Below, one piece after another: positions 1 to 64,000 of a stretch of DNA of 64,000 nt (its first letter is position 1; each line of letters starts with the position of its first letter). The notes below the pieces were generated by a model that saw only the letters and a list, made by a program, of their open reading frames with translations, was not told the origin of the DNA and made no database searches. This DNA is from Phocoena phocoena (taxonomy: Eukaryota; Chordata; Mammalia; Artiodactyla; Phocoenidae). A program made the position numbers and the translations under genes. Location of the stretch: positions 1,105,001 through 1,169,000 of the forward strand of contig NC_089239.1 in the NCBI RefSeq assembly GCF_963924675.1, in the 5' to 3' direction.

Positions 1-253
1 TGCGAGTAGAAGTTCACTCAGGGAAGGACCCATTGTGTATCTTGAGGGAGAAAGGCTGCTCGTGTTCCACCTGCAACTAAAGGAGACTTCTTCGTGTAAC
101 ACGGCAGTGTTTTGGGAGAGGAAATGCTTATAGGCCTCACTAGAGCCTGTCTTGTTGGAGGCAGTTTGCTACACGCAGAAGTCTCTGCGAAAGAAGTTGA
201 TTCACGTCAGGGCCCATTGTGAACCTCCTGTGTCTTTCGACACCTTAAATTTA

Positions 254-264
254 CAGGTAAGTAT
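254..264 (+). other. Splice-donor-like motif CAG/GTAAGTAT
   Basis: CAG|GTAAGTAT matches the U1-complementary donor consensus and is preceded by TTTA. It is present in every unit whose leader is visible. Subfamily 3 (U17-U23) has one inserted A, giving GTAAGTAAT, which still keeps GTAAGT. A second, weaker donor-like site, GAG|GTAAGG, lies near 513-521. There is no evidence in this window of transcription or of a matched acceptor, so this may be chance. Confidence 0.35.
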
Positions 265-275
265 ACTGCATGTTT

Positions 276-291
276 GCCTGCAAATGCAGGC
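276..291. repeat. Perfect 7-bp inverted repeat with AA spacer
   Basis: GCCTGCA-AA-TGCAGGC is a near-palindrome, unchanged in every unit I checked. The two-base spacer is too short for a stable hairpin loop, so a symmetric protein-binding site, or chance, is more likely than an RNA structure. Confidence 0.5.
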
Positions 292-592
292 CTGATGGCA
301 CAAGGCGTGTTTCCCATTCTGAAAGTTCTGTTCACGGGGCCTTGAATTTCCCGGAGAGGCATACTGTTCACGGCTCTGTTGAAATTGTAGGCCTGGCTCT
401 GGGAAGAAATGGGGTTTTCGCTACTAAAACATGCTGCTTCCAAGGCCCGGTTGGGAGCTGATGCTGTCATTCTCTATACCTACGTGAAGACCAAAAGTCA
501 AGCCGTTGCCTCGAGGTAAGGCCCTGAATTGCCCTGCTGAAGCGGAGGCATGCAGCAGTTTCAAAATGGACTTCGTCGCAGTGCAGGAAGGC

Positions 593-804
593 TTTTCTTC
601 TTCTTCTTCTTCTTTGTACACGGGGCTCTCACTGTTGTGGCCTCTCCCGCTCCGGAGCAGAGACTACAGACGCGCAGGCTCAGCGGCCTGGGCTCTCGGG
701 CCTATTCATTCAAGGGCATGTTGGAACCTCCCGGTCCGGGGCACGAACTCGTGTCTCCTGCATCGGCAGGCAGACCCTCCACCACTGCGCCACCGGGGAA
801 GCCC
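593..804 (-). mobile_element. SINE A, tRNA-derived CHR-type SINE (cetacean)
   Basis: Read on the minus strand the element starts at 804 with GGGCTTCCCCGGTGGCGCAG. It keeps an intact Pol III A box (TGGCGCAGTGG), then the GCCTGCCGATGCAGG segment and a B box with one mismatch (AGTTCGTGCCC). The body ends in GAGAGGCCACAACAGTGAGAG followed by the GAA-rich tail. The middle has drifted from the family consensus, notably around 690-730. No convincing target-site duplication is visible. The right flank is homologous to that of SINE B. Family assignment is from recognition of the consensus. Confidence 0.88.
594..615. repeat. (TTC)n microsatellite, the A-rich tail of SINE A
   Basis: On the minus strand this reads as a GAA/AAG-rich run directly after the 3' end of SINE A, so it is best read as the SINE's A-rich tail turned into a microsatellite. 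Its overall length is the same in the units compared. U1-U9 read GGCTTTTCTTC, and from U10 onward the first C is T, giving seven consecutive T's. Confidence 0.8.
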
Positions 805-1070
805 GACTTTCTGCATTATTGTAACGTTAGCACACATTTCCGGACACATAGAACACTCGCGTGGGCACCCTATTCCCTGCAAGGACACTGAGTAGCGGCA
901 GGCTCCACTCTTCTGCTCAGAAACATCCAGGCCCGGAAGCCATTCCCAGTCACTCTGTGTATGCCGAGCGTAGGGAAACACACGGCACTCTCCCCTGGGA
1001 GAGCTAGATTTCGTCAGCACACCAACAACTCCAGGAAGTCCGTTCTCTCGCGTGCTACAGGCCATAGAGG
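805..1070. repeat. R_A, right flank of SINE A
   Basis: This 266-bp non-coding segment aligns without gaps to R_B (1639-1904), with about 48 differences by my count (roughly 18%). The part from 995 on (CTGGGA...TTTCGTCAGCAC) resembles the leader near 399-445, another sign of an older sub-repeat. Confidence 0.8.
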
Positions 1071-1437
1071 TCTTCCTCATTGCCCTCATCTGAGCTGCAC
1101 CGGGAAAAACCATCTGCTTCGCATTCTATTTACGAACTCGTACTCGAAGACACCATACGATGAGGACATAGCCGGCATGCATTCCTACTGTAATGAAAGC
1201 ACAGAATTCTTCCTGTTAAACTGCAGCATTTCAGAAGAGACTAAGGACCGAGAGCCTACTTAAGAGAGTTCCGGGATGAGGGAGCTGCCTGCATGTTGAA
1301 CACCCTATGAAGAAAAGTTGATTCAGGGAGGGTACTAGTGTGTAGCTAGAGCCTCCTTTGACTTGTGAGAAAACACAAGGATACAGGCTGCATGTTCACT
1401 GGAGACGGAGGCCAGATGGCAGAAATCTACCCTGCCC
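1071..1437. repeat. P1, first copy of the near-identical 367-bp block
   Basis: P1 runs from TCTTCCTCATTGCC to the left edge of SINE B and recurs as P2 exactly 834 bp downstream with only a few differences. It contains an EcoRI site (GAATTC near 1204) and a further copy of the core seen at 1-36 and 186-221 (GAAGAAAAGTTGATTCAGGG near 1309). P1 of subfamily 1 usually reads GAGCCTACTT where P2 reads GAGCCCACTT. In subfamilies 2 and 3 P1 reads AAGTGGATTC where P2 reads AAGTTGATTC or AGGTTGATTC. Confidence 0.85.
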
Positions 1438-1448
1438 TTTTATTTTCC

Positions 1449-1638
1449 ATATGCGGGCCTCTAACTGCTGTGGCCTCTCCCGTTGCGGATCCCAGGCTCC
1501 AGAAGCACGGGCCCAGCGGCCATGGCTCACGGGCCCAGCCGCCTCTGCGTCCTGTGCGATCTCCCCGGGACGGGCCACGAACCTGTGTACCCCGCTTCGG
1601 CAGGCAGACTCTCAAACACTGCGCCACCAGGGAAGCCC
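1449..1638 (-). mobile_element. SINE B, CHR-type SINE, chimeric flanks
   Basis: On the minus strand it begins GGGCTTCCCTGGTGGCGCAG, keeps the A box, and has a good B box (GGTTCGTGGCCC). The body runs through GGCTGGGCCCGTGAGCCATGG to GGGAGAGGCCAC, ending in a degenerate tail (GGAAAATAAAAGGG, plus-strand about 1436-1449). Its left flank is P, as for SINE C, and its right flank is R, as for SINE A. The T at 1596 is shared with C, and the A at 1606 is shared with A; each differs from the family consensus as I know it. B is therefore probably a C/A recombinant and not a third insertion. Confidence 0.88.
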
Positions 1639-1904
1639 GAAGTTCTGCATTTCTTTACCGTTAGCACACGTCGCCGGACACTTAGAACACTCGCGTTGGC
1701 ACCCTCGTCCCTGTGAGGACACTGAGGAGCTGCAGGCTCCAGTGTTCCGCTTAGAAACATCCAGGCCCGGATGCACTTCCCGATCTCTCCGTGTATGCCG
1801 AGTGCGTGGCAACAAACTGCACTCTTCCTTGGGACAGCTAGATTTCGTCAGCACGCCCAGAGCTCCAGGAAGTCCGCTCTCTCACGTCCTACGTGCCACA
1901 GAAG
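1639..1904. repeat. R_B, right flank of SINE B
   Basis: Gap-free homologue of R_A at about 82% identity, no gene. The similarity jumps to near identity at 1905, where P2 begins. Confidence 0.8.
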
Positions 1905-2271: not shown

Positions 2272-2293
2272 TTTATTTTGCCCCTTCTTCGGC

Positions 2294-2705: not shown

Positions 2706-5409
2706 TGCGAGTAGAAGTTCATTCAGGGAAGGACCCATTGTGTATCTTGAGGGAGAAAGGCTGCTCGTGTTCCACCTGCAACTAAAGGAGACTTCTTCGT
2801 GTAACACGGCAGTGTTTTGGGAGAGGAAATGCTTATAGGCCTCACTAGAGCCTGTCTTGTTGGAGGCAGTTTGCTACACGCAGAAGTCTCTGCGAAAGAA
2901 GTTGATTCACGTCAGGGCCCATTGTGAACCTCCTGTGTCTTTCGACACCTTAAATTTACAGGTAAGTATACTGCATGTTTGCCTGCAAATGCAGGCCTGA
3001 TGGCACAAGGCGTGTTTCCCATTCTGAAAGTTCTGTTCACGGGGCCTTGAATTTCCCGGAGAGGCATACTGTTCACGGCTCTGTTGAAATTGTAGGCCTG
3101 GCTCTGTGAAGAAATGGGGTTTTCGCTGCTAAAACATGCTGCTTCCAAGGCCCGGTTGGGAGCTGATGCTGTCATTCTCTATACCTACGTGAAGACCAAA
3201 AGTCAGCCGTTGCCTCGAGGTAAGGCCCTGAATTGCCCTGCTGAAGCGGAGGCATGCAGCAGTTTCAAAATGGACTTCGTCGCAGTGCAGGAAGGCTTTT
3301 CTTCTTCTTCTTCTTCTTTGTACACGGGGCTCTCACTGTTGTGACCTCTCCCGCTCCGGAGCAGAGACTACAGACGCGCAGGCTCAGCGGCCTGGGCTCT
3401 CGGGCCTATTCATTCAAGGGCATGTTGGAACCTCCCGGTCCGGGGCACGAACTCGTGTCTCCTGCATCGGCAGGCAGACCCTCCACCACTGCGCCACCGG
3501 GGAAGCCCGACTTTCTGCATTATTGTAACGTTAGCACACATTTCCGGACACATAGAACACTCGCGTGGGCACCCTATTCCCTGCAAGGACACTGAGTAGC
3601 GGCAGGCTCCACTCTTCTGCTCAGAAACATCCAGGCCCGGAAGCCATTCCCAGTCACTCTGTGTATGCCGAGCGTAGGGAAACACACGGCACTCTCCCCT
3701 GGGACAGCTAGATTTCGTCAGCACACCAACAACTCCAGGAAGTCCGTTCTCTCGCGTGCTACAGGCCATAGAGGTCTTCCTCATTGCCCTCATCTGAGCT
3801 GCACCGGGAAAAACCATCTGCTTCGCATTCTATCTACGAACTCGTACTCGAAGACACCATACGATGAGGACATAGCCGGCATGCATTCCTACTGTAATGA
3901 AAGCACAGAATTCTTCCTGTTAAACTGCAGCATTTCAGAAGAGACTAAGGACCGAGAGCCTACTTAAGAGAGTTCCGGGATGAGGGAGCTGCCTGCATGT
4001 TGAACACCCTATGAAGAAAAGTTGATTCAGGGAGGGTACTAGTGTGTAGCTAGAGCCTCCTTTGACTTGTGAGAAAACACAAGGATACAGGCTGCATGTT
4101 CACTGGAGACGGAGGCCAGATGGCAGAAATCTACCCTGCCCTTTTATTTTCCATATGCGGGCCTCTAACTGCTGTGGCCTCTCCCGTTGCGGATCCCAGG
4201 CTCCAGAAGCACGGGCCCAGTGGCCATGGCTCACGGGCCCAGCCGCCTCTGCGTCCTGTGCGATCTCCCCGGGACGGGCCACGAACCTGTGTACCCCGCT
4301 TCGGCAGGCAGACTCTCAAACACTGCGCCACCAGGGAAGCCCGAAGTTCTGCATTTCTTTACCGTTAGCACACGTCGCCGGACACTTAGAACACTCGCGT
4401 TGGCACCCTCGTCCCTGTGAGGACACTGAGGAGCTGCAGGCTCCAGTGTTCCGCTTAGAAACATCCAGGCCCGGATGCACTTCCCGATCTCTCCGTGTAT
4501 GCCGAGTGCGTGGCAACAAACTGCACTCTTCCTTGGGACAGCTAGATTTCGTCAGCACGCCCAGAGCTCCAGGAAGTCCGCTCTCTCACGTCCTACGTGC
4601 CACAGAAGTCTTCCTCATTGCCCTCATCTGAGCTGCACCGGGAAAAACCCTCTGCTTCGCATTCTATCTACGAACTCGTACTCGAAGACACCATACGATG
4701 AGGACATAGCCGGCATGCATTCCTACTGTAATGAAAGCACAGAATTCTTCCTGTTAAACTGCAGCATTTCAGAAGAGACTAAGGACCGAGAGCCCACTTA
4801 AGAGAGTTCCGGGATGAGGGAGCTGCCTGCATGTTGAACACCCTATGAAGAAAAGTTGATTCAGGGAGGGTACTAGTGTGTAGCTAGAGCCTCCTTTGAC
4901 TTGTGAGAAAACACAGGGTTATAGCTGCATGTTCACTGGAGACGGAGGCCAGATGGCAGAAATCTTCCCTGCCCGTTTATTTTGCCCCTTCTTCGGCCAT
5001 GTGCGGGCCTCTGGCTGTGGTGGCCTCTCCCGTTGCGGATCACACGTTCCAGAAGCCCAGGCCCAGCGGCCATGGCTCACGGGCCCAGCCGCTCTGCGTC
5101 CTGTGGGATCTTCCCAGACTGGGCTACGAAACCGTGTTGACGGCTTCGGCAGGCGGACTCTCAACCCCTGCGCCACCAGGGAAACCCCGCTTGCCCATCT
5201 TGAAAGGTCCATTCGTGCTGTCTGGAACCTTCCTAAAGTACAGGTTTCTAACGGGCCTGTCTGTAGGCAGTGTAGGCAGTACTCGGGGAACAAAGGCATT
5301 TTCGCCGAATATACAGGGTGCTACCGTAGCCCGTTTAGGAGCGGCACATGATTATAGGCCTAACTTGAGCCTGCCTCGGTTGACGCAGTTCACTAAACGC
5401 AGGACACCC
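2706..5409 (+). repeat. Unit U2 (complete, 2,704 bp, U1-U2 subtype)
   Basis: SINEs: A 3297-3508, B 4153-4342, C 4998-5188. It is one base shorter than U1 because the leader reads AGTCAG. It shares GCACGGG in B, CTCTGGCTG in C and AACCCTCTG in P2 with U1. Private changes include CTCTGTGAAG near 3105, GCTGCTAAAAC near 3127 and TGACCTCTCCC near 3344. Confidence 0.95.
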
Positions 5410-7275
5410 TGCGAGTAGAAGTTCATTCACGGAAGGACCCATTGTGTATCTTGAGGGAGAAAGGCTGCTCGTGTTCCACCTGCAACTAAAGGAGACTTCT
5501 TCGTGTAACACGGCAGTGTTTTGGGAGAGGAAATGCTTATAGGCCTCACTAGAGCCTGTCTTGTTGGAGGCAGTTTGCTACACGCAGAAGTCTCTGCGAA
5601 AGAAGTTGATTCACGTCAGGGCCCATTGTGAACCTCCTGTGTCTTTCGACACCTTAAATTTACAGGTAAGTATACTGCATGTTTGCCTGCAAATGCAGGC
5701 CTGATGGCACAAGGCGTGTTTCCCATTCTGAAAGTTCTGTTCACGGGGCCTTGAATTTCCCGGAGAGGCATACGGTTCACGGCTCTGTTGAAATTGTAGG
5801 CCTGGCTCTGGGAAGAAATGGGGTTTTCGCTACTAAAACATGCTGCTTCCAAGGCCCGGTTGGGAGCTGATGCTGTCATTCTCTATACCTACGTGAAGAC
5901 CAAAAGTCAGCCGTTGCCTCGAGGTAAGGCCCTGAATTGCCCTGCTGAAGCGGAGGCATGCAGCAGTTTCAAAATGGATTTCGTCGCAGTGCAGGAAGGC
6001 TTTTCTTCTTCTTCTTCTTCTTTGTACACGGGGCTCTCACTGTTGTGGCCTCTCCCGCTCCGGAGCAGAGACTACAGACGCGCAGGCTCAGCGGCCTGGG
6101 CTCTCGGGCCTATTCATTCAAGGGCATGTTGGAACCTCCCGGTCCGGGGCACGAACTCGTGTCTCCTGCATCGGCAGGCAGACCCTCCACCACTGCGCCA
6201 CCGGGGAAGCCCGACTTTCTGCATTATTGTAACGTTAGCACACATTTCCGGACACATAGAACACTCGCGTGGGCACCCTATTCCCTGCAAGGACACTGAG
6301 TAGCGGCAGGCTCCACTCTTCTGCTCAGAAACATCTAGGCCCGGAAGCCATTCCCAGTCACTCTGTGTATGCCGAGCGCAGGGAAACACACGGCACTCTC
6401 CCCTGGGACAGCTAGATTTCGTCAGCACACCAACAACTCCAGGAAGTCCGTTCTCTCGCGTGCTACAGGCCATAGAGGTCTTCCTCATTGCCCTCATCTG
6501 AGCTGCAGCGGGAAAAACCATCTGCTTCGCATTCTATCTACGAACTCGTACTCGAAGACACCATACGATGAGGACATAGCCGGCATGCATTCCTACTGTA
6601 ATGAAAGCACAGAATTCTTCCTGTTAAACTGCAGCATTTCAGAAGAGACTAAGGACCGAGAGCCCACTTAAGAGAGTTCCGGGATGAGGGAGCTGCCTGC
6701 ATGTTGAACACCCTATGAAGAAAAGTTGATTCAGGGAGGGTACTAGTGTGTAGCTAGAGCCTCCTTTGACTTGTGAGAAAACACAGGGTTATAGCTGCAT
6801 GTTCACTGGAGACGGAGGCCAGATGGCAGAAATCTTCCCTGCCCGTTTATTTTGCCCCTTCTTCGGCCACGTGCGGGCCTCTGACTGTGGTGGCCTCTCC
6901 CGTTGCGGATCACACGTTCCAGAAGCCCAGGCCCAGCGGCCATGGCTCACGGGCCCAGCCGCTCTGCGTCCTGTGGGATCTTCCCAGACTGGGCTACGAA
7001 ACCGTGTTGACGGCTTCGGCAGGCGGACTCTCAACCACTGCGCCACCAGGGAAACCCCGCTTGCCCATCTTGAAAGGTCCATTCGTGCTGTCTGGAACCT
7101 TCCTAAAGTACAGGTTTCTAACGGGCCTGTAGGCAGTGTAGGCAGTACTCGGGGAACAAAGGCATTTTCGCCGAATATACAGGGTGCTACCGTAGCCCGT
7201 TTAGGAGCGGCACATGATTATAGGCCTAACTTGAGCCTGCCTCGGTTGACGCAGTTCACTAAACGCAGGACACCC
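5410..7275 (+). repeat. Unit U3 (short form, 1,866 bp, module B missing)
   Basis: Contains SINE A (6001-6212) and SINE C (6868-7058) joined through a single P block (6479-6845); SINE B, R_B and one P are absent. It has AGTCAG and the single-CTGT form in C (CCTGTAGGC near 7130), and the CATCTAGGCCC variant near 6334. The last two are shared with U5 but not with U4. It lies between the U1-U2 subtype and the U4-U9 subtype. Confidence 0.95.
6479..6845. repeat. Hybrid P block at the U3 deletion junction
   Basis: The left part carries the P1-side variant CTGCAGCGGG (G at 6508), found in P1 of U5-U9. The right part carries the P2-type GAGCCCACTT (C at 6665) and runs on into SINE C. An exchange between P1 and P2 located between 6508 and 6665 explains the loss of exactly one 834-bp module. 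Confidence 0.7.
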
Positions 7276-9980
7276 TGCGAGTAGAAGTTCACTCAGGGAA
7301 GGACCCATTGTGTATCTTGAGGGAGAAAGGCTGCTCGTGTTCCACCTGCAACTAAAGGAGACTTCTTCGTGTAACACGGCAGTGTTTTGGGAGAGGAAAT
7401 GCTTATAGGCCTCACTAGAGCCTGTCTTGTTGGAGGCAGTTTGCTACACGCAGAAGTCTCTGCGAAAGAAGTTGATTCACGTCAGGGCCCATTGTGAACC
7501 TCCTGTGTCTTTCGACACCTTAAATTTACAGGTAAGTATACTGCATGTTTGCCTGCAAATGCAGGCCTGATGGCACAAGGCGTGTTTCCCATTCTGAAAG
7601 TTCTGTTCACGGGGCCTTGAATTTCCCGGAGAGGCATACTGTTCACGGCTCTGTTGAAATTGTAGGCCTGGCTCTGGGAAGAAATGGGGTTTTCGCTACT
7701 AAAACATGCTGCTTCCAAGGCCCGGTTGGGAGCTGATGCTGTCATTCTCTATACCTACGTGAAGACCAAAAGTCAAGCCGTTGCCTCGAGGTAAGGCCCT
7801 GAATTGCCCTGCTGAAGCGGAGGCATGCAGCAGTTTCAAAATGGACTTCGTCGCAGTGCAGGAAGGCTTTTCTTCTTCTTCTTCTTCTTTGTACACGGGG
7901 CTCTCACTGTTGTGGCCTCTCCCGCTCCGGAGCAGAGACTACAGACGCGCAGGCTCAGCGGCCTGGGCTCTCGGGCCTATTCATTCAAGGGCATGTTGGA
8001 ACCTCCCGGTCCGGGGCACGAACTCGTGTCTCCTGCATCGGCAGGCAGACCCTCCACCACTGCGCCACCGGGGAAGCCCGACTTTCTGCATTATTGTAAC
8101 GTTAGCACACATTTCCGGACACATAGAACACTCGCGTGGGCACCCTATTCCCTGCAAGGACACTGAGTAGCGGCAGGCTCCATTCTTCTGCTCAGAAACA
8201 TCCAGGCCCGGAAGCCATTCCCAGTCACTCTGTGTATGCCGAGCGTAGGGAAACACACGGCACTCTCCCCTGGGACAGCTAGATTTCGTCAGCACACCAA
8301 CAACTCCAGGAAGTCCGTTCTCTTGCGTGCTACAGGCCATAGAGGTCTTCCTCATTGCCCTCATCTGAGCTGCACCGGGAAAAACCATCTGCTTCGCATT
8401 CTATCTACGAACTCGTACTCGAAGACACCATACGATGAGGACATAGCCGGCATGCATTCCTACTGTAATGAAAGCACAGAATTCTTCCTGTTAAACTGCA
8501 GCATTTCAGAAGAGACTAAGGACCGAGAGCCTACTTAAGAGAGTTCCGGGATGAGGGAGCTGCCTGCATGTTGAACACCCTATGAAGAAAAGTTGATTCA
8601 GGGAGGGTACTAGTGTGTAGCTAGAGCCTCCTTTGACTTGTGAGAAAACACAAGGATATAGGCTGCATGTTCACTGGAGACGGAGGCCAGATGGCAGAAA
8701 TCTACCCTGCCCTTTTATTTTCCATATGCGGGCCTCTAACTGCTGTGGCCTCTCCCGTTGCGGATCCCAGGCTCCAGAAGCGCGGGCCCAGCGGCCATGG
8801 CTCACGGGCCCAGCCGCCTCTGCGTCCTGTGCGATCTCCCCGGGACGGGCCACGAACCTGTGTACCCCGCTTCGGCAGGCAGACTCTCAAACACTGCGCC
8901 ACCAGGGAAGCCCGAAGTTCTGCATTTCTTTACCGTTAGCACACGTCGCCGGACACTTAGAACACTCGCGTTGGCACCCTCGTCCCTGTGAGGACACTGA
9001 GGAGCTGCAGGCTCCAGTGTTCCGCTTAGAAACATCCAGGCCCGGATGCACTTCCCGATCTCTCCGTGTATGCCGAGTGCGTGGCAACAAACTGCACTCT
9101 TCCTTGGGACAGCTAGATTTCGTCAGCACGCCCAGAGCTCCAGGAAGTCCGCTCTCTCACGTCCTACGTGCCACAGAAGTCTTCCTCATTGCCCTCATCT
9201 GAGCTGCACCGGGAAAAACCATCTGCTTCGCATTCTATCTACGAACTCGTACTCGAAGACACCATACGATGAGGACATAGCCGGCATGCATTCCTACTGT
9301 AATGAAAGCACAGAATTCTTCCTGTTAAACTGCAGCATTTCAGAAGAGACTAAGGACCGAGAGCCCACTTAAGAGAGTTCCGGGATGAGGGAGCTGCCTG
9401 CATGTTGAACACCCTATGAAGAAAAGTTGATTCAGGGAGGGTACTAGTGTGTAGCTAGAGCCTCCTTTGACTTGTGAGAAAACACAGGGTTATAGCTGCA
9501 TGTTCACTGGAGACGGAGGCCAGATGGCAGAAATCTTCCCTGCCCGTTTATTTTGCCCCTTCTTCGGCCACGTGCGGGCCTCTGACTGTGGTGGCCTCTC
9601 CCGTTGCGGATCACACGTTCCAGAAGCCCAGGCCCAGCGGCCATGGCTCACGGGCCCAGCCGCTCTGCGTCCTGTGGGATCTTCCCAGACTGGGCTACGA
9701 AACCGTGTTGACGGCTTCGGCAGGCGGACTCTCAACCACTGCGCCACCAGGGAAACCCCGCTTGCCCATCTTGAAAGGTCCATTCGTGCTGTCTGGAACC
9801 TTCCTAAAGTACAGGTTTCTAACGGGCCTGTCTGTAGGCAGTGTAGGCAGTACTCGGGGAACAAAGGCATTTTCGCCGAATATACAGGGTGCTACCGTAG
9901 CCCGTTTAGGAGCGGCACATGATTATAGGCCTAACTTGAGCCTGCCTCGGTTGACGCAGTTCACTAAACGCAGGACACCC
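7276..9980 (+). repeat. Unit U4 (complete, 2,705 bp, subfamily 1)
   Basis: SINEs: A 7868-8079, B 8724-8913, C 9569-9759. It has AGTCAAG and CTGTCTGT. First unit with GCGCGGG in B and CTCTGACTG in C together. Private: CCATTCTTC near 8181 and CTCTTGCGTG near 8321. Confidence 0.95.
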
Positions 9981-22227: not shown

Positions 22228-22427
22228 NNNNNNNNNNNNNNNNNNNNNNNNNNNNNNNNNNNNNNNNNNNNNNNNNNNNNNNNNNNNNNNNNNNNNNNNN
22301 NNNNNNNNNNNNNNNNNNNNNNNNNNNNNNNNNNNNNNNNNNNNNNNNNNNNNNNNNNNNNNNNNNNNNNNNNNNNNNNNNNNNNNNNNNNNNNNNNNNN
22401 NNNNNNNNNNNNNNNNNNNNNNNNNNN
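22228..22427. other. Assembly gap of exactly 200 N
   Basis: A round-number N run, typical of a scaffolding placeholder and not a measured size. From the phase of the sequence on either side, the missing DNA should be close to 1,298 bp plus a whole number of 2.7-kb units (or short units). Subfamily 1 is on the left and subfamily 2 on the right. Confidence 0.98.
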
Positions 22428-35896: not shown

Positions 35897-38596
35897 TGCG
35901 AGTAGAAGTTCATTCAGGGAAGGACCCATTGTGTATCTTGAGGGAGAAAGGCTGCTCGTGTTCCACCTGCAACTAAAGGTGACTTCTTCGTGTAACACGG
36001 CAGTGTTTTGGGAGAGGAAATGCTTATAGGCCTCACTAGAGCGTGTCTTGTTGGAGGCAGTTTGCTATCCGCAGAAGTCTCTGCGAAGGAAGTTGATTCA
36101 CGTCAGGGCCCATTGTGAAGCTCCTGTGTCTTTCGACACCTTAAATTTACAGGTAAGTATACTGCATGTTTGCCTGCAAATGCAGGCCTGATGGCACAAG
36201 GCGTGTTTCCCATTCTGAAAGTTCTGTTCACGGGGCCTTGAATTTCCCGGAGAGGCATACTGTTCACGGCTCTGTTGAAATTGTAGGCCTGGCTCTGGGA
36301 AGAAATGGGGTTTTCGCTACTAAAACATGCTGCTTCCAAGGCCCGGTTGGGAGCTGATGCTGTCATTCTCTATACCTACGTGAAGACCAAAAGTCAGCCG
36401 TTGCCTCGAGGTAAGGCCCTGAATTGCCCTGCTGAAGCGGAGGCATGCAGCAGTTTCAAAATGGACTTCGTCGCAGTGCAGGAAGGCTTTTTTTCTTCTT
36501 CTTCTTCTTTGTACACGGGGCTCTCACTGTTGTGGCCTCTCCCGTTCCGGAACAGAGACTACAGACGCGCAGGCTCAGCGGCCTGGGCTCTCGGGCCTAT
36601 TCATTCAAGGGCATGTTGGAACCTCCCGGTCCGGGGCACGAACTCGTGTCTCCTGCATCGGCAGGCAGACCCTCCACCACTGCGCCACCGGGGAAGCCCG
36701 ACTTTCTGCATTATTGTAACGTTAGCACACATTTCCGGACACATAGAACACTCGCGTGGGCACCCTATTCCCTGCAAGGACACTGAGTAGCGGCAGGCTC
36801 CACTCTTCTGCTCAGAAACATCCAGGCCCGGAAGCCATTCCCAGTCACTCTGTGTATGCCGAGCGTAGGGAAACACACGGCACTCTCCCCTGGGACAGCT
36901 AGATTTCGTCAGCACACCAACAACTCCAGGAAGTCCGTTCTCTCGCGTGCTACAGGCCATAGAGGTCTTCCTCATTGCCCTCATCTGAGCTGCACCGGGA
37001 AAAACCCTCTGCTTCGCATTCTATCTACGAACTCGTACTCGAAGACACCATACGATGAGGACATAGCCGGAATGCATTCCTACTGTAATGAAAGCACAGA
37101 ATTCTTCCTGTTAAACTGCAGCATTTCAGAAGAGACTAAGGACCGAGAGCCTACTTAAGAGAGTTCCGGGATGAGGGAGCTGCCTGCATGTTGAACACCC
37201 TATGAAGAAAAGTGGATTCAGGGAGTGTACTAGTGTGTAGCTAGAGCCTCCTTTGACTTGTGAGAAAACACAAGGATATAGGCTGCATGTTCACTGGAGA
37301 CGGAGGCCAGATGGCAGAAATCTACCCTGCCCTTTTATTTTCCATATGCGGGCCTCTAACTGCTGTGGCCTCTCCCGTTGCGGATCCCAGGCTCCAGAAG
37401 CGTGGGCCCAGCGGCCATGGCTCACGGGCCCAGCCGCCTCTGCGTCCTGTGCGATCTTCCCGGGACGGGCCACGACCTTGTGTACCCCGCTTCGGCAGGC
37501 AGACTCTCAAACACTGCGCCACCAGGGAAGCCCGAAGTTCTGCATTTCTTTACCGTTAGCACACGTCGCCGGACACTTAGAACACTCGCGTTGGCACCCT
37601 CGTCCCTGTGAGGACACTGAGGAGCTGCAGACTCCAGTGTTCCGCTTAGAAACATCCAGGCCCGGATGCACTTCCCGATCTCTCCGTGTATGCCGAGTGC
37701 GTGGCAACAAACTGCACTCTTCCTTGGGACAGCTAGATTTCGTCAGCACGCCCAGAGCTCCAGGAAGTCCGCTCTCTCACGTCCTACGTGCCACAGAAGT
37801 CTTCCTCATTGCCCTCATCTGAGCTGCACCGGGAAAAACCATCTGCTTCGCATTCTATCTACGAACTCGTACTCGAAGACACCATACGATGAGGACATAG
37901 CCGGCATGCATTCCTACTGTAATGAAAGCACAGAATTCTTCCTGTTAAACTGCAGCATTTCAGAAGAGACTAAGGACCGAGAGCCCACTTAAGAGAGTTC
38001 CGGGATGAGGGAGCTGCCTGCGTGTTGAACACCCTATGAAGAAAAGTTGATTCAGGGAGGGTACTAGTGTGTAGCTAGAGCCTCCTTTGACTTGTGAGAA
38101 AACACAGGGTTATAGCTGCATGTTCACTGGAGTCGGAGGCCAGATGGCAGAAATCTTCCCTGCCCGTTTATTTTGCCCCTTCTTCGGCCATGTGCGGGCC
38201 TCTAACTGTTGTGGCCTCTCCCGTTGCGGATCACACGTTCCAGAAGCCCAGGCCCAGCGGCCAAGGCTCACGGGCCCAGCCGCTCTGCGTCCTGTGGGAT
38301 CTTCCCAGACTGGGCTACGAAACCGTGTTGACGGCTTCGGCAGGCGGACTCTCAACCACTGCGCCACCAGGGAAACCCCGCTTGCCCATCTTGAAAGGTC
38401 CATTCGTGCTGTCTGGAACCTTCCTAAAGTACAGGTTTCTAACGGGCCTGTAGGCAGTGTAGGCAGTACTCGGGGAACAAAGGCATTTTCGCCGAATATA
38501 CAGGGTGCTACCGTAGCCCGTTTAGGAGCGGCACATGATTATAGGCCTAACTTGAGCCTGCCTCGGTTGACGCAGTTCACTGAACGCAGGACACCC
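35897..38596 (+). repeat. Unit U15 (complete, 2,700 bp, mosaic of subfamilies 2 and 3)
   Basis: SINEs: A 36488-36699, B 37344-37533, C 38189-38379. Leader and SINE A are subfamily 2 (AGAGCGTGTC, CCCGTTCCGG). Module B is subfamily 3 (TTTATTTTCC, GCGTGGGCC, CACGACCTTG, GCAGACTCC). C returns to subfamily 2 (GAGTCGGAGG). Private: CCGGAACAG near 36549 and GGAGTGTACT near 37224. P1 reads AACCCTCTG and GCCGGAATGC, shared with U16. Confidence 0.95.
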
Positions 38597-41296
38597 TGCG
38601 AGTAGAAGTTCATTCAGGGAAGGACCCATTGTGTATCTTGAGGGAGAAAGGCTGCTCGTGTTCCACCTGCAACTAAAGGTGACTTCTTCGTGTAACACGG
38701 CAGTGTTTTGGGAGAGGAAATGCTTATAGGCCTCACTAGAGCGTGTCTTGTTGGAGGCAGTTTGCTATCCGCAGAAGTCTCTGCGAAGGAAGTTGATTCA
38801 CGTCAGGGCCCATTGTGAAGCTCCTGTGTCTTTCGACACCTTAAATTTACAGGTAAGTATACTGCATGTTTGCCTGCAAATGCAGGCCTGATGGCACAAG
38901 GCGTGTTTCCCATTCTGAAAGTTCTGTTCACGGGGCCTTGAATTTCCCGGAGAGGCATACTGTTCACGGCTCTGTTGAAATTGTAGGCCTGGCTCTGGGA
39001 AGAAATGGGGTTTTCGCTACTAAAACATGCTGCTTCCAAGGCCCGGTTGGGAGCTGATGCTGTCATTCTCTATACCTACGTGAAGACCAAAAGTCAGCCG
39101 TTGCCTCGAGGTAAGGCCCTGAATTGCCCTGCTGAAGCGGAGGCATGCAGCAGTTTCAAAATGGACTTCGTCGCAGTGCAGGAAGGCTTTTTTTCTTCTT
39201 CTTCTTCTTTGTACACGGGGCTCTCACTGTTGTGGCCTCTCCCGCTCCGGAGCAGAGACTACAGACGCGCAGGCTCAGCGGCCTGGGCTCTCGGGCCTAT
39301 TCATTCAAGGGCATGTAGGAACCTCCCGGTCCGGGGCACGAACTCGTGTCTCCTGCATCGGCAGGCAGACCCTCCACCACTGCGCCACCGGGGAAGCCCG
39401 ACTTTCTGCATTATTGTAACGTTAGCACACATTTCCGGACACATAGAACACTCGCGTGGGCACCCTATTCCCTGCAAGGACACTGAGTAGCGGCAGGCTC
39501 CACTCTTCTGCTCAGAAACATCCAGGCCCGGAAGTCATTCCCAGTCACTCTGTGTATGCCGAGCGTAGGGAAACACACGGCACTCTCCCCTGGGACAGCT
39601 AGATTTCGTCAGCACACCAACAACTCCAGGAAGTCCGTTCTCTCGCGTGCTACAGGCCATAGAGGTCTTCCTCATTGCCCTCATCTGAGCTGCACCGGGA
39701 AAAACCCTCTGCTTCGCATTCTATCTACGAACTCGTACTCGAAGACACCATACGATGAGGACATAGCCGGAATGCATTCCTACTGTAATGAAAGCACAGA
39801 ATTCTTCCTGTTAAACTGCAGCATTTCAGAAGAGACTAAGGACCGAGAGCCTACTTAAGAGAGTTCCGGGATGAGGGAGCTGCCTGCATGTTGAACACCC
39901 TATGAAGAAAAGTGGATTCAGGGAGGGTACTAGTGTGTAGCTAGAGCCTCCTTTGACTTGTGAGAAAACACAAGGATATAGGCTGCATGTTCACTGGAGA
40001 CGGAGGCCAGATGGCAGAAATCTACCCTGCCCTTTTATTTTCCATATGCGGGCCTCTAACTGCTGTGGCCTCTCCCGTTGCGGATCCCAGGCTCCAGAAG
40101 CGTGGGCCCAGCGGCCATGGCTCACGGGCCCAGCCGCCTCTGCGTCCTGTGCGATCTTCCCGGGACGGGCCACGACCTTGTGTACCCCGCTTCGGCAGGC
40201 AGACTCTCAAACACTGCGCCACCAGGGAAGCCCGAAGTTCTGCATTTCTTTACCGTTAGCACACGTCGCCGGACACTTAGAACACTCGCGTTGGCACCCT
40301 CGTCCCTGTGAGGACACTGAGGAGCTGCAGACTCCAGTGTTCCGCTTAGAAACATCCAGGCCCGGATGCACTTCCCGATCTCTCCGTGTATGCCGAGTGC
40401 GTGGCAACAAACTGCACTCTTCCTTGGGACAGCTAGATTTCGTCAGCACGCCCAGAGCTCCAGGAAGTCCGCTCTCTCACGTCCTACGTGCCACAGAAGT
40501 CTTCCTCATTGCCCTCATCTGAGCTGCACCGGGAAAAACCATCTGCTTCGCATTCTATCTACGAACTCGTACTCGAAGACACCATACGATGAGGACATAG
40601 CCGTCATGCATTCCTACTGTAATGAAGGCACAGAATTCTTCCTGTTAAACTGCAGCATTTCAGAAGAGACTAAGGTCCGAGAACCCACTTAAGAGAGTTC
40701 CGGGATGAGGCAGTTGCCTGCATGTTGAACACCCTATGAAGAAAGGTTGATTCAGGGAGGGTACTAGTGTGTAGCTAGAGCCTCCTTTGACTTGTGAGAA
40801 AACACAGGGTTATAGCTGCATGTTCACTGGAGACGGAGGCCAGATGGCAGAAATCTTCCCTGCCCGTTTATTTTGCCCCTTCTTCGGCCATGTGCGGGCC
40901 TCTAACTGTTGTGGCCTCTCCCGTTGCGGATCACACGTTCCAGAAGCCCAGGCCCAGCGGCCAAGGCTCACGGGCCCAGCCGCTCTGCGTCCTGTGGGAT
41001 CTTCCCAGACTGGGCTACGAAACCGTGTTGACGGCTTCGGCAGGCGGACTCTCAACCACTGCGCCACCAGGGAAACCCCGCTTGCCCATCTTGAAAGGTC
41101 CATTCGTGCTGTCTGGAACCTTCCTAAAGTACAGGTTTCTAACGGGCCTGTAGGCAGTGTAGGCAGTACTCGGGGAACAAAGGCATTTTCGCCGAATATA
41201 CAGGGTGCTACCGTAGCCCGTTTAGGAGCGGCACATGATTATAGGCCTAACTTGAGCCTGCCTCGGTTGACGCAGTTCACTGAACGCAGGACACCC
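38597..41296 (+). repeat. Unit U16 (complete, 2,700 bp, mosaic)
   Basis: SINEs: A 39188-39399, B 40044-40233, C 40889-41079. The leader is subfamily 2 (AGAGCGTGTC, CTATCCGC). From SINE A onward it is subfamily 3 (CCCGCTCCGG, GAGACGGAGG, GAGGCAGTTGCC, GAAAGGTTGATT). GCATGTAGGAAC in SINE A (near 39313) is shared with U24 only. P2 carries GCCGTCATGC (near 40600), shared with U17 only. Confidence 0.95.
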
Positions 41297-57502: not shown

Positions 57503-59369
57503 TGCGAGTAGAAGTTCATTCAGGGAAGGACCCATTGTGTATCTTGAGGGAGAAAGGCTGCTCGTGTTCCACCTGCAACTAAAGGTGACTTCTTCGTGTA
57601 ACACGGCAGTGTTTTGGGAGAGGAAATGCTTATAGGCCTCACTAGAGCCTGTCTTGTTGGAGGCAGTTTGCTACACGCAGAAGTCTCTGCGAAAGAAGTT
57701 GATTCACGTCAGGGCCCATTGTGAACCTCCTGTGTCTTTCGACACCTTAAATTTACAGGTAAGTAATACTGCATGTTTGCCTGCAAATGCAGGCCTGATG
57801 GCACAAGGCGTGTTTCCCATTCTGAAAGTTCTGTTCACGGGGCCTTGAATTTCCCGGAGAGGCATACTGTTCACGGCTCTGTTGAAACTGTAGGCCTGGC
57901 TCTGGGAAGAAATGGGGTTTTCGCTACTAAAACATGCTGCTTCCAAGGCCCGGTTGGGAGCTGATGCTGTCATTCTCTATACCTACGTGAAGACCAAAAG
58001 TCAGCCGTTGCCTCGAGGTAAGGCCCTGAATTGCCCTGCTGAAGCGGAGGCATGCAGCAGTTTCAAAATGGACTTCGTCGCAGTGCAGGAAGGCTTTTTT
58101 TCTTCTTCTTCTTCTTTGTACACGGGGCTCTCACTGTTGTGGCCTCTCCCGCTCAGGAGCAGAGACTACAGACGCGCAGGCTCAGCGGCCTGGGCTCTCG
58201 GGCCTATTCATTCAAGGCCATGTTGGAACCTCCCGGTCCGGGGCACGAACTCGTGTCTCCTGCATCGGCAGGCAGACCCTCCACCACTGCGCCACCGGGG
58301 AAGCCCGACTTTCTGCATTATTGTAACGTTAGCACACATTTCCGGACACATAGAACACTCGCGTGGGCACCCTATTCCCTGCAAGGACACTGAGTAGCGG
58401 CAGGCTCCACTCTTCTGCTCAGAAACATCCAGGCCCGGAAGCCATTCCCAGTCACTCTGTGTATGCCGAGCGTAGGGAAACACACGGCACTCTCCCCTGG
58501 GACAGCTAGATTTCGTCAGCACACCAACAACTCCAGGAAGTCCGTTCTCTCGCGTGCTACAGGCCATAGAGGTCTTCCTCATTGCCCTCATCTGAGCTGA
58601 ACCGGGAAAAACCATCTGCTTCGCATTCTATCTACGAACTCGTACTCGAAGACACCATACGATGAGGACATAGCCGGCATGCATTCCTACTGTAATGAAG
58701 GCACAGAATTCTTCCTGTTAAACTGCAGCATTTCAGAAGAGACTAAGGACTGAGAACCCACTTAAGAGAGTTCCGGGATGAGGCAGTTGCCTGCATGTTG
58801 AACACCCTATGAAGAAAAGTTGATTCAGGGAGGGTACTAGTGTGTAGCTAGAGCCTCCTTTGACTTGTGAGAAAACACAGGGTTATAGCTGCATGTTCAC
58901 TGGAGACGGAGGCCAGATGGCAGAAATCTTCCCTGCCCGTTTATTTTGCCCCTTCTTCGGCCATGTGCGGGCCTCTAACTGTTGTGGCCTCTCCCGTTGC
59001 GGATCACACGTTCCAGAAGCCCAGGCCCAGCGGCCAAGGCTCACGGGCCCAGCCGCTCTGCGTCCTGTGGGATCTTCCCAGACTGGGCTACGAAACCGTG
59101 TTGACGGCTTCGGCAGGCGGACTCTCAACCACTGCGCCACCAGGGAAACCCCGCTTGCCCATCTTGAAAGGTCCATTCGTGCGGTCTGGAACCTTCCTAA
59201 AGTACAGGTTTCTAATGGGCCTGTAGGCAGTGTAGGCAGTACTCGGGGAACAAAGGCATTTTCGCCGAATATACAGGGTGCTACCGTAGCCCGTTTAGGA
59301 GCGGCACATGATTATAGGCCTAACTTGAGCCTGCCTCGGTTGAGGCAGTTCACTAAACGCAGGACACCC
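57503..59369 (+). repeat. Unit U23 (short form, 1,867 bp, module B missing)
   Basis: SINE A 58095-58306 and SINE C 58962-59152 with a single P (58573-58939). The leader keeps the extra A (GTAAGTAATAC) and CAAGGCCATG of subfamily 3. The right part (AAAAGTTGATT, GTTGAGGCAGTT near 59340) matches U24 better. Private: GTTGAAACTG near 57882, GCTCAGGAGC near 58152, GAGCTGAACC near 58596 and GTGCGGTCTGG near 59179. Confidence 0.95.
58573..58939. repeat. Hybrid P block at the U23 deletion junction
   Basis: It follows R_A directly, so its left end is P1. From G at 58700 (TGAAGGCAC) it carries P2 markers (GAACCC, GAGGCAGTTGCC) and runs into SINE C. The exchange point therefore lies between 58573 and 58700. 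The AAGGACTGAG and AAAAGTTGATT reading is closer to P2 of U24 than to P2 of U22. Confidence 0.65.
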
Positions 59370-62068
59370 TGCGAGTAGAAGTTCATTCAGGGAAGGACCC
59401 ATTGTGTATCTTGAGGGAGAAAGGCTGCTCGTGTTCCACCTGCAACTAAAGGAGACTTCTTCGTGTAACACGGCAGTGTTTTGGGAGAGGAAATGCTTGT
59501 AGGCCTCACTAGAGCCTGTCTTGTTGGAGGCAGTTTGCTACATGCAGAAGTCTCCGCGAAAGAAGTTGATTCACGTCAGGGCCCATTGTGAACCTCCTGT
59601 GTCTTTTGACACCTTAAATTTACAGGTAAGTATACTGCATGTTTGCCTGCAAATGCAGGCCTGATGGCACAAGGCGTGTTTCCCATTCTGAAAGTTCTGT
59701 TCACGGGGCCTTGAATTTCCCGGAGAGGCATACTGTTCACGGCTCTGTTGAAATTGTAGGCCTGGCTCTGGGAAGAAATGGGGTTTTCGCTACTAAAACA
59801 TGCTGCTTCCAAGGCCCGGTTGGGAGCTGATGCTGTCATTCTCTATACCTACGTGAAGACCAAAAGTCAGCCGTTGCCTCGAGGTAAGGCCCTGAATTGC
59901 CCTGCTGAAGCGGAGGCATGCAGCAGTTTCAAAATGGACTTCGTCGCAGTGTAGGAAGGCTTTTTTTCTTCTTCTTCTTCTTTGTACACGGGGCTCTCAC
60001 TGTTGTGGCCTCTCCCGTTCCGGAGCAGAGACTACAGACGCGCAGGCTCAGCGGCCTGGGCTCTCGGGCCTATTCATTCAAGGGCATGTAGGAACCTCCC
60101 GGTCCGGGGCACGAACTCGTGTCTCCTGCATCGGCAGGCAGACCCTCCACCAGTGCGCCACCGGGGAAGCCCGACTTTCTGCATTATTGTAACGTTAGCA
60201 CACATTTCCGGACACATAGAACACTCGCGTGGGCACCCTATTCCCTGCAAGGACACTGAGTAGCGGCAGGCTCCACTCTTCTGCTCAGAAACATCCAGGC
60301 CCGGAAGCCATTCCCAGTCACTCTGTGTATGCCGAGCGTAGGGAAACACACGGCACTCTCCCCTGGGACAGCTAGATTTCGTCAGCACACCAACAACTCC
60401 AGGAAGTCCGTTCTCTCGCGTTCTACAGGCCATAGAGGTCTTCCTCATTGCCCTCATCTGAGCTGCACCGGGAAAAACCATCTGCTTCGCATTCTATCTA
60501 CGAACTCGTACTCGAAGACACCATACGATGAGGACATAGCCGGCATGCATTCCTACTGTAATGAAAGCACAGAATTCTTCCTGTTAAACTGCAGCATTTC
60601 AGAAGAGACTAAGGACCGAGAGCCTACTTAAGAGAGTTCTGGGATGAGGGAGCTGCCTGCATGTTGAACACCCTATGAAGAAAAGTGGATTCAGGGAGGG
60701 TACTAGTGTGTAGCTAGAGCCTCCTTTGACTTGTGAGAAAACACAAGGATATAGGCTGCATGTTCACTGGAGACGGAGGCCAGATGGCAGAAATCTACCC
60801 TGCCCTTTTACATTCCATATGCGGGCCTCTAACTGCTGTGGCCTCTCCCGTTGCGGCTCCCAGGCTCCAGAAGCGCGGGCCCAGCGGCCATGGCTCACGG
60901 GCCCAGCCGCTCTGCGTCCTGTGCGATCTTCCCGGGACGGGCCACGAACCTGTGTACCCCGCTTCGGCAGGCAGACTCTCAAACACTGCGCCACCAGGGA
61001 AGCCCGAAGTTCTGCATTTCTTTACCGTTAGCACACGTCGCCGGACACTTAGAACACTCGCGTTGGCACCCTCGTCCCTGTGAGGACACTGAGGAGCTGC
61101 AGGCTCCAGTGTTCCGCTTAGAAACATCCAGGCCCGGATGCACTTCCCGATCTCTCCGTGTATGCCGAGTGCGTGGCAACAAACTGCACTCTTCCTTGGG
61201 ACAGCTAGATTTCGTCAGGACGCCCAGAGCTCCAGGAAGTCCGCTCTCTCACGTCCTACGTGCCACAGAAGTCTTCCTCATTGCCCTCATCTGAGCTGCA
61301 CCGGGAAAAACCATCTCCTTCGCATTCTATCTACGAACTCGTACTCGAAGACACCATACGATGAGGACATAGCCGGCATCCATTCCTACTGTAATGAAGG
61401 CACAGAATTCTTCCTGTTAAACTGCAGCATTTCAGAAGAGACTAAGGACCGAGAGCCCACTTAAGAGAGTTCCGGGATGAGGCAGTTGCCTGCATGTTGA
61501 ACACCCTATGAAGAAAAGTTGATTCAGGGAGGGTACTAGTGTGTAGCTAGAGCCTCCTTTGACTTGTGAGAAAACACAGGGTTATAGCTGCATGTTCACT
61601 GGAGACGGAGGCCAGACGGCAGAAATCTTCCCTGCCCGTTTATTTTGCCCTTTCTTCGGCCATGTGCGGGCCTCTAACTGTTGTGGCCTCTCCCGTTGCG
61701 GATCACACGTTCCAGAAGCCCAGGCCCAGCGGCCATGGCTCACGGGCCCAGCCGCTCTGCGTCCTGTGGGATCTTCCCAGACTGGGCTACGAAACCGTGT
61801 TGACGGCTTCGGCAGGCGGACTCTCAACCACTGCGCCACCAGGGAAACCCCGCTTGCCCATCTTGAAAGGTCCATTCGTGCTGTCTGGAACCTTCCTAAA
61901 GGACAGGTTCCTAACGGGCCTGTAGGCAGTGTAGGCAGTACTCGGGGAACAAAGGCATTTTCGCCGAATATACAGGGTGCTACCGTAGCCCGTTTAGGAG
62001 CGGCACATGATTATAGGCCTAACTTGAGCCTGCCTCGGTTGAGGCAGTTCACTAAACGCAGGACACCC
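59370..62068 (+). repeat. Unit U24 (complete, 2,699 bp, diverged type)
   Basis: SINEs: A 59961-60172, B 60817-61005, C 61661-61851. It has the GTAAGTATAC leader and GGAGACTTC of subfamily 1, but CCCGTTCCGG and GCGGCTCCC as in subfamily 2, and GAGGCAGTTGCC in P2. Many private changes: GCTTGTAGGCC, ACATGCAG, TCTCCGCG, CTTTTGACAC, GTGTAGGAAGG, CCAGTGCGCC, GCGTTCTAC, TTACATTCC, CAGGACGCC, CATCTCCTTC, GCATCCATTC, CAGACGGC, AAGGACAGGTTCC. Confidence 0.95.
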
Positions 62069-64000
62069 TGCGAGTAGAAGTTCATTCAGGGAAGGACCCA
62101 TTGTGTATCTTGAGGGAGAAAGGCTGCTCGTGTTCCACCTGCAACTAAAGGAGACTTCTTCGTGTAACACGGCAGTGTTTTGGGAGAGGAAATGCTTATA
62201 GGCCTCACTAGAGCCTGTCTTGTTGGAGGCAGTTGGCTACACACAGAAGTCTCTGCGAAAGAAGTTGATTCACGTCAGGGCCCATTGTGAATCTCCTGTG
62301 TCTTTCGACACCTTAAATTTACAGGTAAGTATACTGCATGTTTGCCTGCAAATGCAGGCCTGATGGCACAAGGCGTGTTTCCCATTCTGAAAGTTCTGTT
62401 CACGGGGCCTTGAATTTCCCGGAGAGGCATACTGTTCACGGCTCTGTTGCAATTGTAGGCCTGGCTCTGGGAAGAAATGGGGTTTTCGCTACTAAAACAT
62501 GCTGCTTCCAAGGCCCGGTTGGGAGCTGATGCTGTCATTCTCTATACCTACGTGAAGACCAAAAGTCAGCCGTTGCCTCGAGGTAAGGCCCTGAATTGCC
62601 CTGCTGAAGCGGAGGCATGCAGCAGTTTCAAAATGGACTTCGTCGCAGTGCAGGAAGGCTTTTTTTCTTCTTCTTCTTCTTTGTACACGGGGCTCTCACT
62701 GTTGTGGCCTCTCCAGTTCCGGAGCAGAGACTACAGACGCGCAGGCTCAGCGGCCTGGGCTCTCGGGCCTCTTCATTCAAGGGCATGTTGGAACCTCCCG
62801 GTCCGGGGCACGAACTCGTGTCTCCTGCATCGGCAGGCAGACCCTCCACCACTGCGCCACCGGGGAAGCCCGACTTTCTGCATTATTGTAACGTTAGCAC
62901 ACATTTCTGGACACATAGAACACTCGCGTGGGCACCCTATTCCCTGCAAGGACACTGAGTAGCGGCAGGCTCCACTCTTCTGCTCAGAAACATCCAGGCC
63001 CGGAAGCCATTCCCAGTCACTCTGTGTATGCCGAGCGTAGGGAAACACACGGCACTCTCCCCTGGGACAGCTAGATTTCGTCAGCACACCAACAACTCCA
63101 GGAGTCCGTTCTCTCGCGTGCTACAGGCCATAGAGGTCTTCCTCATTGCCCTCATCTGAGCTGCACCGGGAAAAACCATCTGCTTCGCATTCTATCTACG
63201 AACTCGTACTCGAAGACACCATACGATGAGGACATAGCCGGCATGCATTCCTACTGTAATGAAAGCACAGAATTCTTCCTGTTAAACTGCAGCATTTCAG
63301 AAGAGACTAAGGACCGAGAGCCTACTTAAGAGAGTTCCGGGATGAGGGAGCTGCCTGCATGTTGAACACCCTATGAAGAAAAGTGGATTCAGGGAGGGTA
63401 CTAGTGTGTAGCTAGAGCCTCCTTTGACTTGTGAGAAAACACAAGGATATAGGCTGCATGTTCACTGGAGACGGAGGCCAGATGGCAGAAATCTACCCTG
63501 CCCTTTTATTTTCCATATGCGGGCCTCTAACTGCTGTGGCCTCTCCCGTTGCGGATCCCAGGCTCCAGAAGCGTGGGCCCAGCGGCCATGGCTCACGGGC
63601 CCAGCCGCCTCTGCGTCCTGTGCGATCTTCCCGGGACGGGCCACGACCTTGTGTACCCCGCTTCGGCAGGCAGACTCTCAAACACTGCGCCACCAGGGAA
63701 GCCCGAAGTTCTGCATTTCTTTACCGTTAGCACACGTCGCCGGACACTTAGAACACTCGCGTTGGCACCCTCGTCCCTGTGAGGACACTGAGGAGCTGCA
63801 GACTCCAGTGTTCCGCTTAGAAACATCCAGGCCCGGATGCACTTCCCGATCTCTCCGTGTATGCCGAGTGCGTGGCAACAAACTGCACTCTTCCTTGGGA
63901 CAGCTAGATTTCGTCAGCACGCCCAGAGCTCCAGGAAGTCCGCTCTCTCACGTCCTACGTGCCACAGAAGTCTTCCTCATTGCCCTCATCTGAGCTGCAC
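62069..64000 (+). repeat. Unit U25 (cut by the window end, diverged type)
   Basis: SINEs: A 62660-62871, B 63515-63704; the window ends in P2 before SINE C. Module B is subfamily 3 (GCGTGGGCC, CACGACCTTG). Private: AGTTGGCTAC, ACACAGAAG, GAATCTCC, CTCCAGTTCC, GCCTCTTCATT, TTTCTGGAC, and a 1-bp deletion in CCAGGAGTCC near 63102. Confidence 0.95.

What the first reader, a model, noticed from the sequence alone, without database searches (positions are those of the whole stretch)
1..64000. A 2.70-kb SINE-built macrosatellite in a cetacean genome
At least 25 consecutive units fill the window with no other sequence. The unit is much longer than typical centromeric monomers and about a quarter of it is tRNA-derived SINE, with all copies in the same orientation. 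I do not recognise it as a described cetacean satellite. Large arrays with kilobase units (DXZ4, D4Z4, RS447 and similar) often have chromatin or copy-number roles, so this could be a lineage-specific analogue, but no function is shown here.
Basis: partly seen in the sequence, partly recalled or inferred. Interest (0 to 1): 0.75.

Follow-up and report, generated by a model that had tools for sequence, protein, structure and literature searches.

The report
Whale repeat array with SINE passengers
This is a long stretch of whale or dolphin DNA made of one 2,700-letter unit copied end to end; mobile elements landed inside an older repeat and recombination between them helped build today's unit, an ordinary kind of repeat array with an unusually readable history and no sign of a gene.

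Summary
The array is real. The 21 long units are 98.4-99.96% alike and form local blocks. Three SINE bodies per unit match a published finless-porpoise SINE at 83-84%, supporting a cetacean source. "SINE-built" is only partly right: SINE bodies are 21% of the unit and look like insertions into an older repeat. S3 has an empty site inside the unit; S1 has one in one of three informative database relatives. The middle SINE, S2, is an S3/S1 chimera, the mark of a SINE-SINE unequal exchange that duplicated the core. A 308-column block shows no fixed difference between the two cores; both short units switch cores in or at its edge. No Pfam domain, Rfam family or CTCF-consensus match was found, and the longest ORF is within chance, so a DXZ4/D4Z4-type role has no support here. 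Verdict: new member of a known kind, a TE-bearing megasatellite. Species, chromosome and full size are unknown.

The parts
1..64000 (+). Head-to-tail array, running off both window ends; 25 XhoI sites, 24 intervals
3214..5917 (+). Reference unit u02 (XhoI to XhoI, 2,704 bp) used for the anatomy below
3320..3508 (-). S1, SINE body before core A
   Evidence: 83.1% (157/189) to porpoise STR19 SINE, score 250, null max 41
3509..4153 (+). Core A, non-SINE
   Evidence: frames match ENA-derived proteins P0001-P0005
4154..4342 (-). S2, chimeric SINE body: left side S3-like, right flank S1-like
   Evidence: 83.1% (157/189) to the porpoise SINE; chimerism
4343..5002 (+). Core B, non-SINE
   Evidence: 91% to core A overall, about 82-84% outside the homogenised block
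3774..4081 (+). Homogenised block in core A
   Evidence: 308 columns with no fixed A/B difference in 21 units
4608..4915 (+). Homogenised block in core B
5003..5187 (-). S3, SINE body after core B
   Evidence: 84.3% (156/185) to the porpoise SINE; empty site in spacer D
5188..6022 (+). Spacer D up to the next S1, holding two diverged copies of the right part of the core and a second copy of its own first ~154 bp
5918..7784 (+). Short unit u03 (1,867 bp), one core fewer
58012..59877 (+). Short unit u23 (1,866 bp), one core fewer
22228..22427 (.). 200-N scaffold gap
36405..39104 (+). Mosaic unit u15 between subfamily blocks u10-u14 and u16-u22

Best explanation
A non-coding, TE-bearing megasatellite of a cetacean, kept alike by recombination, with no shown host function. 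Inferred order: (1) an older SINE-free repeat; (2) two same-orientation SINEs inserted, S1 before the core and S3 after it, giving a D-S1-core-S3 unit of about 1.87 kb; (3) unequal exchange between S3 and S1 duplicated the core and left the chimeric S2, giving the 2.70-kb unit; (4) the unit was amplified head to tail and is homogenised locally by unequal exchange and conversion, with exchange between the two cores inside a ~308-bp block still giving 1.87-kb units. Shown: anatomy, junction of the duplication inside a SINE, empty site of S3, local subfamily blocks, mosaic unit, homogenised block. Inferred: order of events, the molecular process, lack of function, array size. The S1 empty site rests on one relative.
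For: Units form local near-identical blocks and u15 is a mosaic of two of them. S2's left flank matches only S3's (97% over 232 bp; most of this lies in the homogenised block) and its right flank only S1's (83% over 245 bp), other flank pairs scoring 20-25 against a null of 28; relative to the porpoise copy 10 base changes in the body are shared with S3, 2 with S1, none by S1 and S3 alone (its printed 11 includes one gap column made by trimming). Core-right plus the sequence after S3, with the SINE body left out, aligns through to an inner SINE-free copy at score 627, null maximum 351 in 100 shuffles (BLAST hits). P0001 residues 1-20 best match the flank left of S1, 0 of 300 shuffles as good, and residues from 22 continue right of S1. 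51 fixed A/B differences lie outside a 308-column run; the longest run in 10,000 random placements was under half that. Block variation between units is not reduced: 10 of 306 and 13 of 305 columns, left cores 8 and 6 of 271. Short units switch cores at unit positions 590-740 and 560-740.
Against: In one search the right side alone scored 272, below the null maximum; the case rests on collinearity and on the BLAST hit of E 2e-9. P0002 and P0004, which also reach the S1 edge, do not show the flank, and P0004 matches SINE bodies weakly (19 and 14 of 300 shuffles). The short units could be survivors of the older 1.87-kb form rather than later losses. Target-site duplications of S1 and S3 are short and unclear by eye. 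One polymorphism only is shared between blocks A and B. No other cetacean sequence could be searched, so order and age are untested.
Confidence: 0.72

Rival explanations
1. The unit is a functional macrosatellite like DXZ4 or D4Z4: a copy-number-sensitive chromatin element with CTCF binding, regulated CpG methylation and an array transcript or gene.
For: Unit size, head-to-tail order and CpG observed/expected of 0.66 resemble DXZ4, which has 3-kb units, 62% GC and 186 CpGs (PMC3218863, passages).
Against: GC is 54% with 131 CpGs. No CTCF consensus match at up to 2 mismatches, 24.55 expected. No Pfam family in ten frames. The 193-codon ORF is equalled by 24 of 200 shuffles and is 176 codons in 6 of 21 units. 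A weight-matrix CTCF search was not done, and chromatin data are not at hand.
Confidence: 0.07
2. The near-identical block in the two cores is a constrained functional element, not a product of conversion.
For: 308 columns lack fixed A/B differences while most of the left core is about 82-84% alike.
Against: Unit-to-unit variation in the blocks (10 of 306 and 13 of 305 columns) is as high as in the left cores (8 and 6 of 271), and the block part is less like the relatives than the left part in 4 of 5.
Confidence: 0.05
3. A centromeric satellite of the species.
For: Long homogeneous array with local blocks; two one-mismatch CENP-B-like sites per unit (50 in the window, 10.36 expected).
Against: No exact CENP-B box was seen; about 0.44 one-mismatch sites are expected per unit, so two in one repeated unit is weak. 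Position on the chromosome is unknown.
Confidence: 0.1
4. Assembly artefact: copies multiplied by the assembler.
For: A 200-N gap joins two contigs inside the array.
Against: No pair of the 21 long units is identical (maximum 99.96%), there are four local blocks and a mosaic unit. The order and copy number across the gap remain unproven.
Confidence: 0.06

Closest known systems
Human TE-patterned megasatellites, e.g. the LTR array on 13q11/18p11/21q11 (PMC2588610, passages)
   Same: Kilobase units without genes, fixed pattern of transposable elements, later TE insertion into a unit, higher-order units, single missing monomers attributed to unequal crossing-over.
   Different: Here the TEs are cetacean SINEs, the core is not a recognised TE, and a SINE-SINE junction made the longer unit.
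DXZ4 and D4Z4 macrosatellites (PMC3218863, passages)
   Same: Uninterrupted head-to-tail array, units near 3 kb, CpG-rich.
   Different: 54% GC against 62% for DXZ4, no CTCF consensus match, no ORF beyond chance; location, expression and methylation unknown.
Common cetacean satellite (PMC9659126, PMC6947457, PMC5615363, passages)
   Same: Kilobase tandem repeat of cetaceans with a TE link.
   Different: It is described as L1-3'-derived; this unit carries SINEs, and no Pfam family was seen in ten frames. Its published sequence was not at hand, so no direct comparison was made; its unit length (about 1.6-1.8 kb) is recalled.
SINE-derived satellites: Xenopus Satellite 1, Hydromantes Hy/Pol III (PMC9659126, PMC6947457, tables)
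   Same: Satellite units containing SINE-type sequence.
   Different: There the unit derives from the tRNA-related region; here SINE bodies are 21% of the unit and look inserted.

Membership tests
TE-bearing megasatellite / macrosatellite | Head-to-tail kilobase units with a fixed TE pattern | tested here: met
TE-bearing megasatellite / macrosatellite | Restricted to one or two genomic places, copy-number variable | not testable with these tools
   The genome search did not complete (9 attempts); no population data
Cetacean tRNA-type SINE (CHR group; group name recalled) | Full-length alignment to a known cetacean copy | tested here: met
   185-189 columns at 83-84%, scores 247-254, null max 41 in 100 shuffles
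Cetacean tRNA-type SINE (CHR group; group name recalled) | tRNA likeness / box B | tested here: inconclusive
   ARAGORN 0, Rfam 0 at E<=1 in 1-6000; box B pattern 14 matches, 12.88 expected
Common cetacean satellite | Sequence identity to the published L1-derived unit | not testable with these tools
   no copy at hand; ten frames show no Pfam family, which does not exclude a non-coding L1 3' end
DXZ4-like CTCF macrosatellite | CTCF site in each unit | tested here: not met
   0 consensus matches at up to 2 mismatches, 24.55 expected; consensus recalled, no weight matrix used
D4Z4-like coding macrosatellite | Conserved ORF in each unit | tested here: not met
Centromeric satellite | CENP-B box | tested here: inconclusive
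   one-mismatch sites only, two per unit; motif recalled; many centromeric satellites lack it

The most novel reading that the evidence does not exclude
A cetacean-lineage satellite family whose unit was rebuilt by SINE-SINE unequal exchange and whose ~308-bp core block is a preferred exchange site: both short units switch in it or at its edge, one of the two subfamily switches in u15 lies inside block B and the other overlaps block A. The array could then be a natural recorder of exchange in whale genomes and might carry a lineage-specific chromatin role. The blocks are about 23% of the unit, so the u15 coincidence is not significant.
Probability: 0.12. Interest if true: 0.5.

Novelty: new member of a known kind. 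Interest (0 to 1): 0.28.

Why it matters
The steps of satellite birth can be read from one unit: old repeat, SINE insertions, SINE-SINE exchange, amplification, local conversion. That would help repeat masking, judging scaffold joins in such arrays, and study of exchange in whale genomes. My paper searches returned mostly reviews and genome papers for cetacean satellites and no description of this unit in the passages seen. It does not change what is known of how such arrays arise.

Tried and rejected
Tandem Repeats Finder listed nothing, its longest period being 500. ARAGORN on the window and Rfam on 1-6000 gave nothing. CTCF, CENP-B and box-B patterns, all recalled, gave no or weak support. 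Coding reading rejected. Scans of viral contigs and genome contigs with unit or SINE patterns found nothing, and with a protein profile 56 and 39 pattern matches, none confirmed. Three protein searches gave 2, 5 and 5 relatives, five in all; the search needs shared 5-residue words and limited length, so absence of others means little. The first A/B comparison mixed short with long units and is superseded, which uses the 21 complete long units and drops the two short, the gap and the end units. By eye I first took P0002 and P0004 as further S1 empty sites (note); the test did not bear that out. The count of 11 sites shared by S2 and S3 includes one gap column caused by trimming, and its 7 'all three' columns include three such; I use 10. 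The 309 printed is a distance between two fixed differences, hence 308 columns. For all papers named I saw only passages or listings, no whole text.
Full report
Observation. The window is a head-to-tail array. The best self-match shift is 2701. XhoI sites occur 25 times; of 24 intervals 21 are 2,699-2,705 bp, two (5918-7784 and 58012-59877) are 1,867 and 1,866 bp, and one contains 200 Ns at 22228-22427. The left contig ends at unit position 923; that end is 100% identical to u06, u07 and u08. The right contig begins 482 bp before the next XhoI site and that stretch is 100% identical to u11 and u13. The contigs thus end in different subfamily blocks. The array runs off both window ends; its full size is unknown.

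Units. The 21 complete long units are 98.41-99.96% alike, mean 99.01%; identity averages 99.63% between successive long units and 98.75% at lag 8, short and gap units being left out. The tree and the informative sites show blocks u01-u08, u10-u14, u16-u22 and u24 alone; u15 agrees with u14 at columns 141-431, with u16 at 603-1445 and with u14 again from 1500. This is localised homogenisation.

Anatomy. In unit u02 (3214-5917) the order is spacer end, S1 (3320-3508), core A (3509-4153), S2 (4154-4342), core B (4343-5002), S3 (5003-5187), spacer D (5188 to the next S1). The internal duplication has an offset of 833/834 bp. The SINE bodies are on the - strand and match the SINE printed in the finless-porpoise STR19 locus (PMC12427282, one passage) at 83.1, 83.1 and 84.3%, scores 247-254 against a maximum of 41 in 100 shuffles. 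The CHR group name and tRNA origin are recalled; passages of PMC3219603 describe cetacean CHR SINEs as tRNA-derived. ARAGORN and Rfam found nothing and the box-B pattern is at chance level (14 against 12.88).

SINEs as passengers. Spacer D holds diverged copies of the right part of the core (61-62%, E 4e-16 and 1e-16, and a shorter one) and a second copy of its own first 154 bp (63.7%, E 2e-9). One inner core copy runs straight into that second copy, whereas core B is separated from the first copy by S3. With the S3 body left out, the two sides align through at 627 against a null maximum of 351; the left side alone scores 446, the right side alone 272, so the right side is carried by collinearity and by the BLAST hit. 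For S1, a protein search with one frame of the core found P0001 and P0002, then P0003-P0005, each from a single ENA contig. P0001 joins the left flank of S1 to the right flank without a SINE: residues 1-20 match the flank with 0 of 300 shuffles as good (tblastn alone gives E 0.095), and residues from 22 continue at 3515. P0002 and P0004, which also reach this edge, do not decide, and P0004 matches SINE bodies weakly (19 and 14 of 300 shuffles). So the S3 case is good and the S1 case moderate.

S2 is a chimera. Its left flank pairs only with that of S3 (97% over 232 bp, most of it in the homogenised block), its right flank only with that of S1 (83% over 245 bp); other flank pairs score 20-25 against a null of 28. 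Relative to the porpoise copy, 10 base changes in the body are shared by S2 and S3, 2 by S2 and S1 and none by S1 and S3 alone; S2 is as close to S1 as to S3 only in the last third (84 against 83%). The junction of the core duplication therefore lies inside a SINE, as an unequal exchange between S3 and S1 would leave it, turning a D-S1-core-S3 unit of about 1.87 kb into the 2.70-kb unit.

Core conversion. Between cores A and B 51 of 646 columns are fixed differences in 21 units, and a run of 308 columns has none; no run of half that length arose in 10,000 random placements. One polymorphism in the block is shared by A and B copies of different units. The block is not less variable between units (3.27 and 4.26% of columns against 2.95 and 2.21% in the left cores) and is less like the relatives than the left part in 4 of 5. 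Conversion or exchange is likelier than selection. The two short units change from core A to core B at unit positions 590-740 and 560-740, in the block or at its edge, as expected if they arise by A-B exchange; survival of the older form is not excluded.

Function. The longest open frame, 193 codons, is equalled by 24 of 200 dinucleotide shuffles and is 176 codons in 6 of 21 units. Ten frames have no Pfam family. P0003, P0004 and P0005 match the window in more than one frame, a sign of non-coding drift. The CTCF consensus is absent at up to 2 mismatches (0, 24.55 expected). CENP-B-like sites have one mismatch each (50 in the window, 10.36 expected) and are weak at the level of one unit. CpG observed/expected is 0.66. 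Transitions are seen at 11 of 262 CpG positions against 22 of 1,198 other C/G positions, ratio 2.3, P 0.035; a looser count gives 2.7. Low germ-line methylation or mere homogenisation could explain this. I see no support for a DXZ4- or D4Z4-like role.

Relation to known things. Human megasatellites with fixed TE patterns expanded by unequal crossing-over are the nearest kind (PMC2588610, passages). Satellites from SINE-like elements are listed for Xenopus and Hydromantes, and the common cetacean satellite as L1-derived (PMC9659126, PMC6947457, passages and tables). The VGP preprint PMC13320880 reports 94% of its satellite families restricted to one species (passage), so a lineage-specific array is expected. 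Six strings of the unit occur in none of the 5.39 million papers, which says little about Dfam or GenBank.

Verdict. A real cetacean megasatellite with a readable history; new member of a known kind; interest 0.28.

Noticed in passing
22228-22427: A 200-N scaffold gap inside the array; the contigs on its two sides end in different subfamily blocks, so much sequence may be missing there.
   Followed up: partly
36405-39104: Unit u15 is a mosaic: u14-like to column 431, u16-like from 603 to 1445, u14-like from 1500.
   Followed up: partly
3509-3907 and 4343-4741: Frames of the cores match five proteins predicted from single ENA contigs of unknown source (P0001-P0005), mutually 64-78% identical, so the non-SINE repeat exists elsewhere in diverged form.
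   Followed up: partly
3214-5917: CpG observed/expected is 0.66 over the unit, with lows of 0.26 and 0.19 in the 200-bp windows at unit positions 751 and 1501, within the two homogenised blocks.
   Followed up: partly
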